Assembly (NCBI GenBank): GCA_009692485.1
Contig: SHZB01000011.1
Location: forward strand, 1 to 38,525
Direction: 5' to 3'
DNA from: Myxococcales bacterium
Lineage (GTDB): Bacteria; Myxococcota_A; Polyangia; Polyangiales; Polyangiaceae
Length of the DNA stretch: 38,525 nt
Part shown: piece after piece, positions 3,748 to 33,652 of the stretch
Position numbering within the stretch: the stretch's first letter is position 1
Layout of the letters: every line of letters starts with the position of its first letter
Position numbers and translations under genes: made by a program
Notes under the pieces: generated by a model
Database searches by the model: none
The model's input: only the letters and a program-made list of their open reading frames with translations
Told to the model about the DNA's origin: nothing

Positions 3748-6168
3748 ATGGGGCATCTGCCGGCGCGGCGAGCGATGTGGCGCAACGCCCTGCGTTGGTT
3801 GGCGCGAAAGCCCGTATTTCCGGCGATCGCGGCGCTGGCCGTGACCTTGTGTTCGTCTCCGCAGGCACACGCCGAGAACCCAGAGCAGGCCTTCAAGGGC
3901 GCGAGCGATCAGATCCAATCCACGGTCTCGGACGCCAGCGCGATTGAGCAAGCGATCGCCATTCAGAAGCAACGGGCGCGCGGTCCCCAGCAGCGCATTG
4001 CCGACGCCGTCCTGCTCATGGGCGTCAAGGATTTCGACCGCGCCGCCGACGTTCTCAACGAGGTTGTAGAGCAGTATCCCGATCACGCGACCGCGTTTGC
4101 CGACGGCCTGCAGCTGCTCGGCGAGACCTACTTCCTTTCGAAGCAATACCTCTCCGCACAGCGCGTTTTCACGAAGCTGGTCGAGCGCGGCACCGAGGCG
4201 CGCTTCCAGCCCTATCGCGAGCGCGCGGTGATCCGGCTCGTGGACATCGCCCTTCGGCTTCGTGACTTCGCTTCGCTCGATCGGCTGTTTTCGCTCGTCG
4301 GACAGCTCAGCAACGAGGCCTCCAGCGGGATGTCCTACGCCCGCGGCAAGGGCCTCTTGGCGCAAGGTAAGCTCGACGCCGCGGAGGTGTCGTTGCGAGC
4401 CGTCGCGGCGGATAGTCAGTTCGCCCACCAGGCGAAGTACCTCGCGGCGGTGCTCGCAATTCGGCGTGTGGCACAGCGCGCCGGAAAGCCGGGCGACCCG
4501 CTGCCAAAGGGCCGCTACGACGAGGCGGTTTCACGATTCCGCGAGGCGACCAAGCTTGCCGGCGACTCCGCCGAGCATCGCCACGTCATCGATCTCGCCT
4601 GGCTCGGCATCGGCCGGCTCATGTTCGAGATGAATCAACTCTCGCAGTCCGTCGAGGCATTCAACCGCATCGACCGCACCTCACCCGAGTTCGGCACGAT
4701 GCTCTACGAGCTTGCCTGGGTGTACGTCCGGATCGGCGACTTTACCCGAGCCCAGCGCGCCCTGGAGGTGCTCGCCGTGTCGGCGCCAGCGAGCCAAGAC
4801 GTTGCCGATGCGGCGCTCCTTCGCGCGGACTTGATGCTGCGCGCGGGACAGTTCGACAAGTCGGTCAAGGTCTATGAGAGCGTCCTCGGCACCTACGACT
4901 CCATGCGCGAGCGGCTCGATTTTTTCCTCGGCTCCACGAACGATCCGGGCGTTTTCTTCGACACGCTGAGCGCCGAACAGCTCGAGCTCTTCGAGTCGGC
5001 GAAGCTTCCGTCGTTGGTCCTACGCTGGGCGCGCGAAGGCGATGATGGCGCGACGGCATTCGCCCTCATCGACGATCTGACGACGTGCCGGCGCCTCATC
5101 AAAGAGTCGAACGAGATGATTGAGCGGCTGAACGCAGTGCTCACGTCTCCCAACAAAATCCGGGCGATTCCGAGCCTCAAGTCGGGCGCAGAGCGTGGTC
5201 TCGGTCTCTTGAACGGCATCGCGCTCGCCCGGATGCGCGTCGGCGGCGGAGTCGACGGCGTCGATGCGAAGCAACTGACGCCAGAATTGCGTGATGCACG
5301 GGCTCAGCGGAAGGCTCTCGAGCAGCGGCTCTCCCTCGTTCCGGTCACGAGCGGCGATTTTTCCGCGCGCGAGCAGCAGGCGAAAAAACAGTGGAACGTC
5401 GCGTCACAATCGCTGATGCGGATCGATCTGGAGATCGACACGCTGCAAGCGACCATCAATGGGCTGGAGCGGATGCTCAACGACGCTCCGCAGCAGGGCA
5501 TCGTCCGTAGTCCGCAGCAGCTTCAGATGTATCGGCATTCGCTCGAGGAGCAGAAGCGGCTCGTGGCGCAGTATCGAGCCGAGGGCGGTGAGCTTCGGCG
5601 CGTCATCGATGCCGGCAAGATTCAAGTTGGGTTCGGCGACAAGCGTTTCATCGAGGATGAACAGGTTCGCAAACAATACGCCCAGCTTCTCTGGAAAGAG
5701 GTCCGCCTCGCCGTGCAGGGGGCAGGCGGCGCCGCCCTCGCAGAATACGCAAAACGCCTCGTGCCGCTGTTGACGCTCGCGGATGATACCGAGCAGAAGA
5801 TCGAAGCCACGCTCCGTAAACTCTACGCCACGGTCCAAGATAAGGTGGCCGAGCTTCGGCGCGTCGTGCAGCACGAGACGCAAAACGTCGTCGAGTTTTC
5901 CCTTCGGCTAGACGCTCTCGACGGCGAAGCGCGCAGCGTCGTCGGCGGCATCGCGATGCGAAATTTCGGCCTCGTACGTGAACGTCTCAAGAACATCGTG
6001 CTCCGCGCCGATGTTGGGATCACCGAAGAGGCATGGGAGGTCCGCGAAGAGCAGCAGACGCGCGTGCGCCGCCTCAAAGTCGAGAAGACCCGCACCGAGA
6101 ATCGCCTGCAGGAGGAGCTCGATGAGGTCCTAGACGACAGCGGGAATACCGAGTCGGAGGAAGATTGA
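3748..6168 (+). CDS. Large periplasmic TPR/coiled-coil protein of the Glt/Nfs-like operon
   Basis: The protein has about 806 aa with a signal peptide (ARKPVFPAIAALAVTL...AHA). The N-terminal half has TPR-like helix pairs (VLLMGVKDFDRAADVLNEVV, LYELAWVYVRIGDFTRAQRA). The C-terminal half, about residues 480-800, is largely coiled coil (RDARAQRKALEQRLSLV, EEQKRLVAQYRAEGGELRR) and ends in an acidic EELDEVLDDSGNTESEED tail. Start choice is uncertain: ATG at 3748 or 3775, or a TTG at 3730 that has a weak GAG. It overlaps the next gene by 4 bp and its last codons supply that gene's GGAGG ribosome site, so the two are translationally coupled. It is likely a periplasmic scaffold. I do not recognise a specific named homologue. 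Confidence 0.85.
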   Translation: MGHLPARRAMWRNALRWLARKPVFPAIAALAVTLCSSPQAHAENPEQAFKGASDQIQSTVSDASAIEQAIAIQKQRARGPQQRIADAVLLMGVKDFDRAADVLNEVVEQYPDHATAFADGLQLLGETYFLSKQYLSAQRVFTKLVERGTEARFQPYRERAVIRLVDIALRLRDFASLDRLFSLVGQLSNEASSGMSYARGKGLLAQGKLDAAEVSLRAVAADSQFAHQAKYLAAVLAIRRVAQRAGKPGDPLPKGRYDEAVSRFREATKLAGDSAEHRHVIDLAWLGIGRLMFEMNQLSQSVEAFNRIDRTSPEFGTMLYELAWVYVRIGDFTRAQRALEVLAVSAPASQDVADAALLRADLMLRAGQFDKSVKVYESVLGTYDSMRERLDFFLGSTNDPGVFFDTLSAEQLELFESAKLPSLVLRWAREGDDGATAFALIDDLTTCRRLIKESNEMIERLNAVLTSPNKIRAIPSLKSGAERGLGLLNGIALARMRVGGGVDGVDAKQLTPELRDARAQRKALEQRLSLVPVTSGDFSAREQQAKKQWNVASQSLMRIDLEIDTLQATINGLERMLNDAPQQGIVRSPQQLQMYRHSLEEQKRLVAQYRAEGGELRRVIDAGKIQVGFGDKRFIEDEQVRKQYAQLLWKEVRLAVQGAGGAALAEYAKRLVPLLTLADDTEQKIEATLRKLYATVQDKVAELRRVVQHETQNVVEFSLRLDALDGEARSVVGGIAMRNFGLVRERLKNIVLRADVGITEEAWEVREEQQTRVRRLKVEKTRTENRLQEELDEVLDDSGNTESEED

Positions 6169-25208: not shown

Positions 25209-26572
25209 CGGGGGACCTTCACGATTCGGCTGTTGAAGGTGTCGGCGATGTAGAGCGCACCGCTCGCGTCGAAGGCGAGCCCGAAGGGCCGGTTCAGCTC
25301 GACCTCGCGCGCAGTCACGCCGTCGGCTTTGCTGCCAGCAGTGCCCGTGCCGACCACGGTCTCGACGACGCCGGTGTCGAGATCGATCGCGCGCACGACG
25401 TGGTTGTCGGTGTCGGCCACGTAGAGCCGCCCGTCGGGCCCGAGCTCGAGATCGCGCACGTTGTTGAAGCTTGCATCGAGCGCGCTCTTGCCGTCACCGG
25501 AGAAGCCGGGCTTGCCGTTGCCAGCGACCGTCGCGATGAGCCCCGTGGCCAAGTCGACGACGCGGATACGGTGGTTGAGCGCGTCCGCGACGTAGAGCTT
25601 TCCGCCCGCGTAGAGCAGCGCCCCCGACGGCTCGGGATTGCCGCCGGCCTCGAACGCGAGCTCGGCGGCGTCCGCGGGGCCGCCGTCGCCGCTGAATCCG
25701 GCGGTGCCCTTACCGACGGCGGTGCCCATCGTCGCAGTCTCGTCGCCGGAAACGCGCCGTACCCGGAAATTACGCTGATCCAGAATGTAGAGCTCGCCCG
25801 AGTCGCCGTACGCGAGCGCCTTCGGCTGGTTGAATTTTGCCGTGCGGGACGGGCCGCCGTCGCCCACGAATCCGGGTCCGCTTCCGTAGATCACGACGAC
25901 GTTGCCGGTCTCGGGATCGAGCTTGCGGATCTTGTGGTTGTGCCACGCCGCGAACACCAGCGCGCCGTCCGGGCGGAACACGATGTCGGTCGGGTGATTG
26001 AGGCTCACGTCGAGGCCGGGGGCGCCAGGCTCTTCGAGATCGAGGCCGCCGGGGGCACCGTCGCCGACGAAGGTTCCGACCGCGGTCGCGACCGTGCCGT
26101 CCGGCTGCACCTTGCGGAGCATGTGGTTGTTCCAGTCGAGGAACCACGCCGTGCCGTCGGGCGCGAAGCTGAGATCGAGTGGCCAGTAGAGGAGTGTGTC
26201 GCGGCGATCTTTGCCGTCGCCATTGAGCCCGAGCTCGCCGGTCTTTCCGGCCCAAACGCACGCCACGCCGGAGGCCTCTTCGCACGGCGGCGCCTCTTCG
26301 GGATCGCACGCGACCGACGCGACCGAGAGCAGCACGAGGCAGACGGCTCGGGCGCCAGTTCGCGCTGCGCGAAGGTGGTTTCCAGTCTTGCATGGGCCAT
26401 TCACGTATTGGCCATTCACGGTTTGGCCATTCACGTATTGGCCATTCACGTATTGGCCATTCACGGTTTGGCCATTCACGGTTTGGCCATTCACGTATTG
26501 GCCATTCACGTATTGGCCATTCACGTATTGGTCATTCAGCGTGTGCACGATCGCCTCTGGGCTCGGTTGCAT
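25205..26572 (-). CDS. NHL-repeat lipoprotein with pentapeptide-repeat N-terminus before the signal
   Basis: The protein has 455 aa from the ATG at 26572, chosen because GAGGA lies 6 nt upstream; ATGs at 26578, 26611 and 26638 are in frame but less well placed. The N-terminus MQPSPEAIVHTLND is followed by nine QYVNG/QTVNG pentapeptides and only then by the lipoprotein signal (RAVCLVLLSVASVAC, then DPEEA). If translated, the array adds about 60 residues before the signal, which is odd for a Sec substrate. GTG codons within the array (GTGAATGG) could be the real starts, making the array a leader. The mature part is a beta-propeller of NHL blades (LSFAPDGTAWFLDWNNHMLR, LELGPDGRLYVADTDNHVVR, LAFDASGALYIADTFNSRIV). 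Confidence 0.82.
   Translation of the reverse strand: MQPSPEAIVHTLNDQYVNGQYVNGQYVNGQTVNGQTVNGQYVNGQYVNGQTVNGQYVNGPCKTGNHLRAARTGARAVCLVLLSVASVACDPEEAPPCEEASGVACVWAGKTGELGLNGDGKDRRDTLLYWPLDLSFAPDGTAWFLDWNNHMLRKVQPDGTVATAVGTFVGDGAPGGLDLEEPGAPGLDVSLNHPTDIVFRPDGALVFAAWHNHKIRKLDPETGNVVVIYGSGPGFVGDGGPSRTAKFNQPKALAYGDSGELYILDQRNFRVRRVSGDETATMGTAVGKGTAGFSGDGGPADAAELAFEAGGNPEPSGALLYAGGKLYVADALNHRIRVVDLATGLIATVAGNGKPGFSGDGKSALDASFNNVRDLELGPDGRLYVADTDNHVVRAIDLDTGVVETVVGTGTAGSKADGVTAREVELNRPFGLAFDASGALYIADTFNSRIVKVPR
26395..26544. repeat. 15-bp tandem array, 9 units plus one decayed
   Basis: Units GGCCATTCACGTATT and GGCCATTCACGGTTT run head to tail from 26395 to 26529 in the order a-b-a-a-b-b-a-a-a. A decayed unit lies at 26530-26544. 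On the minus strand it lies in frame in the NHL gene, giving QYVNG or QTVNG. There are no spacers, so this is not a CRISPR array. Confidence 0.95.
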
Positions 26573-28393: not shown

Positions 28394-29269
28394 ATGGTCC
28401 TTCACGATCCCGTCGCCCTGCGCGCCATGTGCGACCACGCGCGGAGTGAGGGCCGCCGCGTGGGCTTCGTTCCGACGATGGGCGCGCTGCATGACGGCCA
28501 CCTCGCGCTCGTGCGTGAGGCGAGAAGCCGCGCGACCTTCGTCGTCGTGTCGGTGTTCGTGAACCCGACGCAGTTCGGTCCGGCGGAGGACTTCTCTCGC
28601 TACCCGCGCACGCTCGAAAGCGACTGCGCGCGCTGTGCCGAGGCGCTCGTCGACGTCGTGTTCGCCCCCGAAAAAGACGTCATTTACGCACCGGGAGACG
28701 AGACTCGCGTGCGCGTCGGCGACACCGCTGCGGCCCTCTGCGGCGCCCATCGCCCCGGGCATTTCGAGGGCGTGTGCACCGTGGTCGCGAAGCTCTTCGC
28801 GCTGGTCGGTCCGGCCGTGGCGGTCTTCGGACGGAAGGATTATCAGCAGTACCGCGTCATCGACCGCATGACGCGCGACCTCGCCATGCCGATCGAAGTC
28901 GTCGGCCTTCGGACCGTGCGCGAACCGGACGGACTCGCGCTCTCGTCCCGCAATGCGTACCTCTCGGCCGGCGAACGCACCCGCGCGCTTGGGCTCGCCC
29001 GCGGGCTCTCGCACGCGGTGCGCGCCTTCGAGAGTGGCGCACGAAACGCGGGACACCTTCGCTCGCTCGTCCTCGCAGAGGTCACGCGCGCGGCGACGTT
29101 GATCGACTACGTCACCGTCGCCGACCCCGACACGGTGCGGCCGATCTTCGACGCGGACTGCATCGGCGAGCGCGCGCTCGTGGCGGTGGCGGCGCGCATC
29201 GGAGCGACCCGGCTCATCGACAACGTGGTGCTCGGCGAAGATCCGGCCCCCATCGAGGTGTGCGCGTGA
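28394..29269 (+). CDS. panC: Pantothenate synthetase
   Basis: The protein has 291 aa from the ATG at 28394; a GTG one codon earlier is also open. It joins pantoate and beta-alanine with ATP to make pantothenate, the precursor of coenzyme A. Recognised motifs are [20 protein letters not shown] (contains the HIGH-like nucleotide motif), [46 protein letters not shown] (KDxQQ) and [14 protein letters not shown] (KMSKS equivalent). Length fits the family at about 280 aa. The last 36 bp belong to a 68-bp duplication that also covers the tmk start. Confidence 0.97.
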
Positions 29270-29369
29270 CGGCCGCAATTCGCGGCAAATTCGTGGTGTT
29301 CGGCGAAGACCCGGCCCCCATCGAGGTGTGCGCGTGACGGCCGCAATTCGCGGCAAATTCGTGGTGTTC
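29234..29369. repeat. 68-bp tandem duplication across the panC/tmk junction
   Basis: Copies at 29234-29301 and 29302-29369 differ at a single base (T/C at unit position 9). Each copy holds the panC 3' end, the GTGA stop/start overlap and the tmk 5' end. A CGTGGTG-TTC-like sequence lies at both edges (panC has CGTGGTGCTC), suggesting slippage between short homologies. Confidence 0.97.
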
Positions 29370-29981
29370 GAGGGGATCGACGGCGCCGGCACGACGACCC
29401 AGCTCGCGCGCTATGGAGCCCATCTTCGCTCGCTCGGTCAGGCCGTTCACCTCACCCGCGAGCCGAGCGCTGGCCCCGTCGGCTCGATGCTACGCCTCGC
29501 GCTCAGCAAGCGACTCGAGCTTGGCGGCGCCACGCACGCGCAGACGATGGCGCTGTTGTTCGCCGCCGATCGCCTCGATCACGTCGCGCACGAAATCGAG
29601 CCGCACCTTGCTCTCGGCACGCACGTTCTCTCGGATCGCTACGATCTCTCGAGCCTCGCCTACCAGACGGCGACCACCGAGCCCGCGCACAACCCCGGCG
29701 TCGATGCCGTCCTTTGGGTCCGGTCGCTCAATCGCTTCGCGCTCCGGCCCGATGCCACCGTCGTGCTCGACGTGAGCCCGGATGTCGCCGCCCAGCGCCG
29801 CGACACCCGGGCCGCGCAGATCGAGCTCTACGAGCGGCAAGATCTCCAAGCCAAGCTCGCCGCGCTCTACCGCGACGCCGAGCGGCTCGTGCCCGGAGAT
29901 TGCATCCTCCACATCGACGGCAATGCCAGCGCCGACGCGGTGACCTTTGCCGTCATCGCCGCGCTAGCTCCGCGCCGATAG
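29334..29981 (+). CDS. tmk: Thymidylate kinase with atypical P-loop
   Basis: The protein has 215 aa from the GTG at 29334, with GAGG 7 nt upstream; a GTG at 29328 is alternative. It phosphorylates dTMP to dTDP. The N-terminus KFVVFEGIDGAGTTTQLARY is the family P-loop, but the Lys of GxxGxGK[ST] is Thr here. Other motifs are intact: LTREPS, LGTHVLSDRYDLSSLAYQ (DRY) and a lid-like RAAQIELYERQDLQAKLAAL. The start lies in the second copy of the 68-bp duplication. In the first copy, panC ends and the truncated tmk start reads into the duplicated panC tail. The gene converges with the next one; GCGCCG (29972) and CGGCGC (29991) could form a stem at its 3' end. Confidence 0.93.
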   Translation: MTAAIRGKFVVFEGIDGAGTTTQLARYGAHLRSLGQAVHLTREPSAGPVGSMLRLALSKRLELGGATHAQTMALLFAADRLDHVAHEIEPHLALGTHVLSDRYDLSSLAYQTATTEPAHNPGVDAVLWVRSLNRFALRPDATVVLDVSPDVAAQRRDTRAAQIELYERQDLQAKLAALYRDAERLVPGDCILHIDGNASADAVTFAVIAALAPRR

Positions 29982-31630: not shown

Positions 31631-31733
31631 GCACGCCGCCTCGTGATCCTCGATGTCGGCATGCCCTCGTGGGCGCACGCCGCCTGGTGATCCTCGATGT
31701 CGGCATGCCCTCGTGGGCGCACGCCGCCGGTTC
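31631..31733. repeat. 44-bp tandem duplication between divergent genes
   Basis: Units at 31631-31674 and 31675-31718 are followed by a 15-bp third start at 31719. The unit includes GTGATCCTCGATGTCGGCAT and GCCCTCGTGGGCGC. It lies between the Cys-rich lipoprotein and porin genes, just upstream of the porin start at 31766. Confidence 0.92.
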
Positions 31734-31765: not shown

Positions 31766-33652
31766 ATGCAGCCCTCGCCCCGCCGTCTCGTTCTGGCATC
31801 CTCTTTGGTAGTGCTCGTGGCATCGCTCGCCGCTCGACGAGATGCGCACGCCGCGAGCTCGCCGACGCAAACCCCTGCGATTCCGGCTCCCGGCGATGCG
31901 GATGACGATGACGATGACGACGACAAGGACGACGACAACGACGGGGCGAGTGACGCCGGCAAGCCCACACTCACCACGACCTGGGGCGCGAAGGTTCAAT
32001 CCGATTTGCGGTTTCGCGCGGCCAAGGTCGGTGCCGGGCCGTGGTTCGACCGGCGTGAGCTGCCCGCGGGCGTGGACCGAAACGAGAACCTCTTCGGGGC
32101 ACGTTTCGCGGCCGAATACGGTAAGCTCAGCGCCCGCGCCGACCTCGATTTCGTCTTGTATGGAGCCGCGCGCGACGTCGAGACGTTCACCGACCTGACG
32201 CGACGCGAGGTGGTCGATCCCTTCCGCATCGACGCGCACAACCTCTACGTAGAGATGCGCGATCTCTTCGTCAGGGGCCTCGATCTTCGCGTGGGACAGC
32301 AGCTCGTCGAGTGGGGCGCCGCCGATCAGTTCAACCCCACGAACAACCTCAACGCCGACGATCTGGAGGACGTGCTTCTCTTCGGGGACCAGCAGGGCAA
32401 CATGATGGTGCGCTTCGACTACTGGCTCAATGAGGACTGGTCGCACCAGCTCGTGGTGGTGCCCGTCTTCAGGCCCGCGCTCTTGCCGCGCTCGGCGGCG
32501 CTCGCGACTGGCGCGGTCGATCGATTGCCCATGGTGGAAGAGTCGCTTCGCTGGCGCCTCCACGCCGAGACCGCCGCGGCGCTCGACAACCCGCTCGCAT
32601 CGCGCAACGCCACCGTGGTCGCGAGCGTGCGCCCGACTTTGCCGGACCTGTCTTTCGAGAACATGCAGCTTGGCTATCGGCTCGCGGGCACGCTCTTCGA
32701 TCAGGACGTCTCGCTCAGCTATTACCTGGGCCGCAGCGACTTTCCGGTCGCCGCGCGCCAAGACGTGCATCAAGACCGCACGCGCCGCTGCAATCCCGAG
32801 GACGCGAGCGACTGCATCGACAGCGTCCTCTTGACGGACGTGACGCTCCAGTATCCGCGCATGCACGTCTTCGGGCTCAACGTCGCGGGCGAGATTGGCA
32901 CCCTCAAGGCACTCAGCGACAAGCTCTTCAACGCCGTCGGCTACCGGCTCGAAGCCGCGCTCATCGTCCCGAAGGAGACCCGGATGGAAGTTCAACGCGG
33001 GCCCGTCGTGATCGGCCCCATCGACGTCCCCGCGGGCGAGTACGACTACGAGGGCGACGGCACAGCGGGAGGCGCGCGCCCCATCGTCGTCACGGACACT
33101 CCGTTTCTGAAGTGGACCGCGGGGGTCGATTACACCTTCAGCGGCACGGCCTATGCCAATTTGCAGTGGGTCCACGGATTCCCCGACGAGTTCGGCGCGG
33201 GGGATTTTTTCTCGAGCGGGGTGACCGTGGCCGAGGGCGGCGTGACGACGGACCCGACCACGACTGCCCTCGACTGTGCCTTCGTGCTCTCCGGTGAGAA
33301 ATGCGCGCGCGAGGTGCTGCGACCGCGGCTCGGCGACTACCTCGTCGGCGGCCTGATGTTCCATTTCATGCAGCAAAAGCTGATGCTGCGGCTCTTCACG
33401 ATCTTCGCGCTCAACGGCGTAGAAGAGTCGACCTACGACCAAGCCGCGGGCAAGCGCATCAAGGTTTCACACTCGATGTTCACGGAGAAGGGCTTCTCGG
33501 CGGTGATCTACCCCGAGCTCAACTACAATTTCGGCAACGGTCTCGACCTCGGCCTCGGCGTGCTCGGACAGCTCGGCAAGACCTCGACGAAGTTCGGCGA
33601 TCCCGCGGGTGGCGGCTCCGTCGTGTGGACCCGCACGCGCTTCAATTTCTGA
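31766..33652 (+). CDS. DUF1302-like outer-membrane porin with Asp-rich N-terminal segment
   Basis: The protein has 628 aa from the ATG at 31766. A signal peptide (LVLASSLVVLVASLAARRDAHA) is followed by an acidic stretch (ADDDDDDDDKDDDNDGASD, about residues 45-65) that could bind calcium. The body is beta-rich with DUF1302-type features (DLFVRGLDLRVGQQLVEWGA, ADQFNPTNNLNADDLEDVLL) and ends in an aromatic strand with terminal Phe (VVWTRTRFNF), as in many barrels. A Cys pair lies near residue 335 (RRCNPEDASDCID). Members of this family are thought to be porins for hydrophobic or ester substrates in some Proteobacteria. Two acyl-CoA dehydrogenase genes lie about 1 kb away, which would fit fatty-acid-like substrates (weak inference). 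Confidence 0.8.
   Translation: MQPSPRRLVLASSLVVLVASLAARRDAHAASSPTQTPAIPAPGDADDDDDDDDKDDDNDGASDAGKPTLTTTWGAKVQSDLRFRAAKVGAGPWFDRRELPAGVDRNENLFGARFAAEYGKLSARADLDFVLYGAARDVETFTDLTRREVVDPFRIDAHNLYVEMRDLFVRGLDLRVGQQLVEWGAADQFNPTNNLNADDLEDVLLFGDQQGNMMVRFDYWLNEDWSHQLVVVPVFRPALLPRSAALATGAVDRLPMVEESLRWRLHAETAAALDNPLASRNATVVASVRPTLPDLSFENMQLGYRLAGTLFDQDVSLSYYLGRSDFPVAARQDVHQDRTRRCNPEDASDCIDSVLLTDVTLQYPRMHVFGLNVAGEIGTLKALSDKLFNAVGYRLEAALIVPKETRMEVQRGPVVIGPIDVPAGEYDYEGDGTAGGARPIVVTDTPFLKWTAGVDYTFSGTAYANLQWVHGFPDEFGAGDFFSSGVTVAEGGVTTDPTTTALDCAFVLSGEKCAREVLRPRLGDYLVGGLMFHFMQQKLMLRLFTIFALNGVEESTYDQAAGKRIKVSHSMFTEKGFSAVIYPELNYNFGNGLDLGLGVLGQLGKTSTKFGDPAGGGSVVWTRTRFNF

What the first reader, a model, noticed from the sequence alone, without database searches (positions are those of the whole stretch)
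29234..29369. 68-bp duplication that copied the panC/tmk stop-start junction
The two copies differ at one base, so the event is recent. It keeps both essential genes intact: panC ends in copy 1 and tmk starts in copy 2, but their former GTGA coupling is broken and a decoy tmk start remains in copy 1. CGTGGTG-type homologies at the edges suggest the mechanism.
Basis: seen in the sequence. Interest (0 to 1): 0.6.

Follow-up and report, generated by a model that had tools for sequence, protein, structure and literature searches.

The report
Duplicated gene junction forms translation relay
A 68-letter stretch covering the end of one essential gene (panC) and the start of the next (tmk) has been copied in tandem, and instead of cutting the link between the two genes it created a 23-codon mini-gene that can hand ribosomes from one to the other; other junctions in the same bacterial genome show the same pattern.

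Summary
The duplication is real: 29234-29301 and 29302-29369 match at 67 of 68 bases (29242 T / 29310 C). All other panC-tmk junctions examined are single copy, including all four congeners; three of these have a 4-nt ATGA overlap.

An 11-bp near-match (CGTGGTGyTCG, 10/11) between panC codons (NVVLG) and tmk codons (FVVFEG) at the outer edges points to homology-mediated slippage. Sampled tandem-duplication density in this genome is about 6.5 times that of its congeners.

The unit is 2 mod 3, so the copy-1 start (GTG 29266, GTGA overlap with panC) opens a 23-codon chimeric ORF (Tmk N-terminus plus PanC C-terminus). Its TGA (29335-29337) overlaps the tmk GTG (29334) as GTGA. The direct gap is now 64 nt, too far for coupling, but the mini-ORF restores a -4 overlap at each step, with the same Shine-Dalgarno (GAGGTG).

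Five further junction relays were found in about 1 Mb of the same genome (recJ/ABC, ABC/MacB permease and others); none supported by repeat similarity in 0.88 Mb of relatives. Nearest known analogue: mycobacterial MIRUs.

Shown: anatomy, recurrence, single-copy state in relatives. Inferred: translation of the mini-ORFs, and selection.

The parts
28394..29269 (+). panC, pantoate--beta-alanine ligase; stop TGA 29267-29269 in copy 1 (alternative start GTG 28391)
   Evidence: TIGR00018 306.7 bits, cut-off 212.75; 66-76% identity to congeners
29224..29234 (+). left edge homology CGTGGTGCTCG (panC codons GTG GTG CTC, NVVLG)
   Evidence: pairs with 29360-29370 at 10 of 11 bases
29234..29301 (+). copy 1 of the 68-bp unit: panC 3' end, GTGA overlap, and first 12 codons of tmk
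29302..29369 (+). copy 2 of the 68-bp unit; one mismatch (29310 C against 29242 T)
29257..29262 (+). Shine-Dalgarno-like GAGGTG, 3 nt before the copy-1 GTG's GTGC..., serving the copy-1 start GTG 29266
   Evidence: anti-SD duplex -7.2 kcal/mol, identical at both starts; exact placement read
29266..29337 (+). relay mini-ORF, 23 codons: [12 protein letters not shown] (Tmk N-terminus) + [11 protein letters not shown] (PanC C-terminus), then TGA; GTGA overlap with panC at its start and with tmk at its end
   Evidence: no match in NCBIfam
29325..29330 (+). Shine-Dalgarno-like GAGGTG, the copy that serves tmk GTG 29334
   Evidence: anti-SD duplex -7.2 kcal/mol
29334..29981 (+). tmk, dTMP kinase, starting in copy 2 at GTG 29334 (in-frame GTG 29328 is an alternative)
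   Evidence: TIGR00041 132.3 bits, cut-off 83.25; the MTAAxRG N-terminus and GTGA start are matched in relative L013
29360..29370 (+). right edge homology CGTGGTGTTCG (tmk codons GTG GTG TTC, FVVFEG)

Best explanation
A single-copy panC-tmk pair with a 4-nt stop-start overlap underwent a 68-bp tandem duplication by slippage (or unequal exchange) between an 11-bp imperfect homology that both genes carry because both encode a Val-Val-(Leu/Phe) motif in the same codon phase. The shared codon phase, with the one-base frame offset of a GTGA overlap, forces the unit to be 2 mod 3. Therefore the copy-1 tmk start, still overlapping the panC stop, opens a 23-codon chimeric ORF that stops exactly on the copy-2 tmk start, again as GTGA. 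A ribosome finishing panC can reinitiate at GTG 29266, translate 23 codons, terminate at 29335-29337 and reinitiate at GTG 29334. Direct initiation at tmk from its own Shine-Dalgarno sequence remains possible. Tmk output is expected to be kept, perhaps lowered by one extra reinitiation step. SHOWN: sequence anatomy, single-copy state in relatives, recurrence at other junctions of the same genome. INFERRED: translation of the mini-ORF, reinitiation, effect on Tmk level, slippage as the mechanism.
For: Exact anatomy. Congeners have one copy, three with ATGA; among 52 loci with tmk next to panC (own included, some genomes counted twice) only the own locus has a duplication, and 34 show an in-phase NTGA stop-start motif. 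Edge homology is 10/11, against 2.7e-5 for random position pairs in the window. Published reporter work on native E. coli pairs: coupling nearly lost at +38 nt and often by about +20 nt, whereas the last 15 nt of the upstream gene suffice (PMC10666635); here the direct gap is 64 nt but each relay step is -4 nt and the mini-ORF ends in the same 35 nt as panC apart from one base. Recurrence: relays at recJ/ABC ATPase (53 bp, mini-ORF VTRARRAAALALHDYAFE), an unnamed pair in L235 (41 bp, VTIAEFLFHAWTVA), a pair in L168 (36+35 bp), an ABC ATPase/MacB permease pair (35 bp, two chained mini-ORFs) and a pair in L241 (29+29 bp) (family matches). The congener versions seen of recJ/ABC (L258) and ABC/permease (L269) have a single GTGA. 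Genome-wide setting: 91 tandem duplications (unit 30-400 bp) per Mb against 14 per Mb in congeners, p about 5e-10.
Against: No translation data. tmk keeps a good Shine-Dalgarno sequence of its own, so it may not need coupling and the mini-ORF may be inert. The 2-mod-3 excess at junctions is suggestive only: the unconditioned survey gave 3 relays, 2 in-frame cases and 0 of the third kind, a separate cut-off gave one weak 1-mod-3 case, and three further relays were found by inspection or by a search conditioned on relays. Edge-homology p-value ignores that the best breakpoint placement was chosen.
Confidence: 0.62

Rival explanations
1. Real but neutral: the duplication broke nothing because tmk initiates independently from its own Shine-Dalgarno sequence in copy 2; the mini-ORF is an untranslated or irrelevant by-product.
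For: The same strong SD (duplex -7.2 kcal/mol) and start are present intact in copy 2, and predicted accessibility of the tmk start is the same with or without the duplication. The genome carries many tandem duplications, so one more needs no functional reason.
Against: The -4 overlap is conserved across three congeners and much of the family, and all junction duplications judged sound are of the two kinds that keep a -4 link (2 or 0 mod 3).
Confidence: 0.3
2. Coupling really is broken: tmk now sits 64 nt behind the panC stop, with a decoy start that captures reinitiating ribosomes and lowers Tmk.
For: Direct distance is 64 nt, beyond the range of coupling measured in native E. coli pairs (PMC10666635).
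Against: The captured ribosome terminates exactly on the tmk start (GTGA 29334), so the 'decoy' delivers it rather than diverting it.
Confidence: 0.05
3. Assembly artefact of a metagenome-assembled genome (false tandem copy).
For: Fragmented assembly, 277 contigs, 86% complete; no reads available here.
Against: The 11-bp edge homology is far shorter than assembler k-mers, so the novel join must have come from reads; the copies differ by a base; assemblers collapse tandem copies more often than they create them; many independent duplications of different unit lengths occur across the assembly. This reasoning is general knowledge, not a test.
Confidence: 0.03

Closest known systems
Mycobacterial interspersed repetitive units (MIRUs) inserted at gene starts
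   Different: MIRUs are dispersed and appear mobile; here the unit is made of the two flanking genes themselves, is found only at this site, and arises by local tandem duplication.
Translational coupling by termination-reinitiation at ATGA/GTGA overlaps (Huber et al. 2019, 2023)
   Same: -4 nt overlap at both ends of the mini-ORF, upstream Shine-Dalgarno sequence, co-directed genes (PMC6728339, PMC10666635).
   Different: Two successive overlaps through a chimeric 23-codon intermediate instead of one overlap.
Short upstream ORFs that deliver ribosomes to a coupled downstream gene (uORFs, bicistronic designs)
   Same: The short ORF serves to bring a ribosome to the next start (discussed in PMC12548453).
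   Different: The short ORF here is itself coupled to an upstream gene and was made from pieces of both neighbours.
Homology-mediated tandem duplication by replication slippage (general knowledge)
   Same: Short near-identical direct repeat at the edges, head-to-tail copies.
   Different: Nothing mechanistic; the homology is protein-coding on both sides and in the same codon phase, which fixes the unit at 2 mod 3.

Membership tests
Tandem duplication by slippage between short direct repeats | Head-to-tail copies with high identity | tested here: met
   67/68 identity
Tandem duplication by slippage between short direct repeats | Short homology at both outer edges, present before the event | tested here: met
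   CGTGGTGyTCG in panC and tmk, 10/11; related codons in congeners' NVVLG and VVFEG motifs
Tandem duplication by slippage between short direct repeats | Single-copy ancestral state | tested here: met
   All four congeners single copy; no duplication in any other adjacent panC-tmk locus
Tandem duplication by slippage between short direct repeats | RecA-independent slippage rather than unequal exchange | not testable with these tools
   needs genetics
Termination-reinitiation coupled gene pair | -4 nt (ATGA/GTGA) or -1 nt stop-start overlap, or a very short gap | tested here: met
   panC/mini-ORF GTGA 29266 and mini-ORF/tmk GTGA 29334; the direct panC/tmk pair does not meet it (64-nt gap)
Termination-reinitiation coupled gene pair | Downstream translation depends on upstream termination at the overlap | not testable with these tools
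   needs a reporter assay
MIRU | Short ORF in the repeat coupled to the next gene at -4 nt | tested here: met
   mini-ORF stop overlaps the tmk start
MIRU | Interspersed, multi-locus repeat | tested here: not met
   the unit has matches only at 29234-29301 and 29302-29369 in the whole assembly

The most novel reading that the evidence does not exclude
In a lineage with a high rate of tandem duplication, duplications across overlapping stop-start junctions are kept mainly when their length lets a relay ORF (2 mod 3) or an in-frame N-terminal extension (0 mod 3) preserve the -4 link. Such events repeatedly generate short chimeric coding sequences, some chained two in a row, between operon genes. 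This would make junction duplication a route to new small ORFs and direct evolutionary evidence that coupling is under selection.
Probability: 0.35. Interest if true: 0.65.

Novelty: new variant of a known kind. Interest (0 to 1): 0.48.

Why it matters
It corrects a natural assumption, that duplicating an overlapping stop-start junction breaks coupling. Depending only on unit length modulo three, the duplication can rebuild the coupling through a new mini-ORF made of both neighbours' ends. If translated, such relays are natural experiments on whether bacterial operons need tight coupling, and they offer a simple origin for short, chimeric, ribosome-delivering ORFs. The excess of tandem duplications in this genome makes the length-modulo-three prediction testable on many junctions at once.

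Tried and rejected
RNA structure: the 201-nt region folds no better than shuffles (z 1.23), so a structural element is unlikely. Internal promoter or terminator: no sigma-70-like promoter or + strand terminator between panC and tmk. Mobile or dispersed repeat: the unit is unique in the genome. Loss of MutS as the cause of the high duplication load: MutS1 is missing from this assembly and complete in three of four congeners, but its conserved neighbour genes are missing too, and contig C47 starts about 1.3 kb before the nearest conserved gene found, so this is missing data, not a shown deletion; MutL is present. Most of the 71 relay chains lack sequence similarity between junctions and occur at a similar rate in relatives (49 in 0.88 Mb); I treat them as chance and count only those whose junctions are near-identical. 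Ambiguous cases left out of the count: L240 (26-bp array), L237 (23 bp), L159 (11 bp), L234 minus strand (20 bp) and L250 (25 bp, 1 mod 3, weak coding signal).

Full report
Observation. The window holds two head-to-tail 68-bp copies, 29234-29301 and 29302-29369, with one mismatch (29242 T / 29310 C). Drawn from 29224, a second difference appears (29231 C / 29299 T), which is what a join of the tmk-side edge onto panC sequence would produce. The flanking genes are panC (TIGR00018) and tmk (TIGR00041), both over their curated cut-offs. The unit is found nowhere else in the assembly. Shuffled sequence gives no such duplications.

Ancestry. The window lies in a 4.13-Mb, 277-contig, 86% complete genome. 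All four congeners have panC next to tmk in single copy; three overlap as ATGA, and the fourth has a few bases between stop and start. Across the loci fetched from relatives, tmk lies next to panC in 52 cases (own included, some genomes counted twice); 34 show an in-phase NTGA motif at the stop, and no other locus has a duplication. A more distant relative, L013, has the same GTGAC-GCC-GC start as here (MTAARGSF), which supports GTG 29334 as the tmk start and GTGA as the pre-duplication state. The duplication is thus derived in this lineage; its age is poorly bounded (0.04-8% divergence from 1 difference in 68).

Mechanism of origin. The outer edges carry CGTGGTGCTCG (panC 29224-29234) and CGTGGTGTTCG (tmk 29360-29370), 10 of 11 bases. 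Random position pairs in this window match that well in about 2.7e-5 of trials. Both edges encode Val-Val in the same codon phase: NVVLGED at the PanC C-terminus and FVVFEG at the Tmk N-terminus, both conserved in relatives. Slippage or unequal exchange between them gives exactly this product. The genome is unusually rich in tandem duplications with 30-400 bp units: 57 in 627 kb sampled (91 per Mb) against 9 in 642 kb of four congeners (14 per Mb), p about 5e-10. So the event is one of many.

What it does to coupling. With a single copy, panC ended and tmk began in one GTGA. Now the panC stop (29267-29269) and the tmk start (29334) are 64 nt apart. Measured on native E. coli pairs, reinitiation falls by 80-90% or more at 38 nt (PMC10666635). 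But the copy-1 GTG (29266) is not a dead-end decoy. Because 68 is 2 mod 3, it opens a 23-codon frame, [23 protein letters not shown], that stops at 29335-29337, overlapping the tmk GTG 29334 as GTGA. Both starts have the same GAGGTG Shine-Dalgarno sequence (duplex -7.2 kcal/mol). The last 15 nt of an upstream gene suffice for coupling (PMC10666635), and the mini-ORF ends in the panC 3' end. The anatomy therefore predicts a two-step relay. The 2-mod-3 length is a direct consequence of homology in equal codon phase between two genes offset by a 4-nt overlap.

Recurrence. In about 1.0 Mb of the same genome I looked for tandem duplications across 4-nt overlaps. A survey not conditioned on reading frame returned five: this one (68), recJ/ABC ATPase in L234 (53), an unnamed pair in L235 (41), and two 0-mod-3 cases that would extend the downstream N-terminus (L171, 24; L173, 54, weaker); none was 1 mod 3. 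A different cut-off added one weak 1-mod-3 case, L250. Inspection and a relay-conditioned search added L168 (three ATGA copies, 36+35), L249 (ABC ATPase/MacB-type permease, 35, two chained mini-ORFs) and L241 (29+29, two chained mini-ORFs). In L234, L235 and L241 the mini-ORF is again downstream N-terminus plus upstream C-terminus. Pfam confirms real genes on both sides for L234 and L249 and on the downstream side for L168; L235 has no Pfam match and L241 was not scanned. The congener junctions that could be read have a single GTGA: L258 for recJ/ABC and L269 for ABC/permease. Relay chains whose junctions are near-identical (19 or more of 24 bases) were absent from 0.88 Mb of relatives, as expected if relays follow from the high duplication rate.

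Statistics, with caution. Six relays against none or one 1-mod-3 case, compared with 58:49 or 58:48 among other tandem duplications, gives p = 0.035 or 0.14. Three of the six came from searches or inspection that favour relays, so this is a lead and not a demonstration of selection.

Known context. The nearest described system is the MIRU of mycobacteria, whose internal ORF becomes coupled at -4 nt to the gene it sits before, probably softening the insertion (PMC12548453). The present unit is not a MIRU by the dispersal criterion but works alike in design. My literature searches found no account of tandem duplication of an overlapping stop-start junction building a relay; the library holds open-access papers only, so this is weak evidence of novelty.

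Verdict. Observation confirmed; the interpretation needs amending from 'broken coupling plus decoy' to 'relay by a chimeric mini-ORF'. Ordinary mutational mechanism, unusual and testable consequence.

Noticed in passing
whole assembly (samples L116-L135, L156-L175): Tandem-duplication density is about 6.5 times that of four congeners (91 against 14 per Mb for 30-400 bp units), with short-period arrays also raised.
   Followed up: partly
L234 18264-18381 (G000:C21): 53-bp duplication across the recJ/ABC-ATPase GTGA junction making the relay ORF VTRARRAAALALHDYAFE.
   Followed up: yes
L249 16256-16357 (G000:C36): ABC ATPase/MacB-type permease junction with two chained 12-codon relay ORFs; congener L269 has a single GTGA.
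   Followed up: yes
L168 2112-2186 (G000:C183): Three copies of an ATGA junction (36 and 35 nt apart); relay ORF MSFERTLLCARPMRLERTLLVLAR.
   Followed up: partly
L241 minus strand, reverse-complement positions 4850-4958: 29-bp duplications giving two chained relay ORFs (MIDGRARSRP, VIDGRARSRP) before a gene starting MIDEARL.
   Followed up: partly
L171 1621-1673 (G000:C186): 24-bp duplication of an ATGA junction (0 mod 3) that would add eight residues to the downstream protein's N-terminus.
   Followed up: partly
genome G000: MutS1 and its conserved neighbour genes are missing from the assembly although three congeners have complete mutS; contig C47 breaks in that neighbourhood, so absence is unproven. 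MutL is present.
   Followed up: partly
window 31631-31728: Another near-perfect tandem duplication, 44-bp unit, 2.2 copies, 98%, overlapping the divergent gene starts near 31766.
   Followed up: no
window 26395-26538: 15-bp unit repeated 9.6 times, encoding a VNGQY/VNGQT-type repeat at the N-terminus of a minus-strand protein.
   Followed up: no
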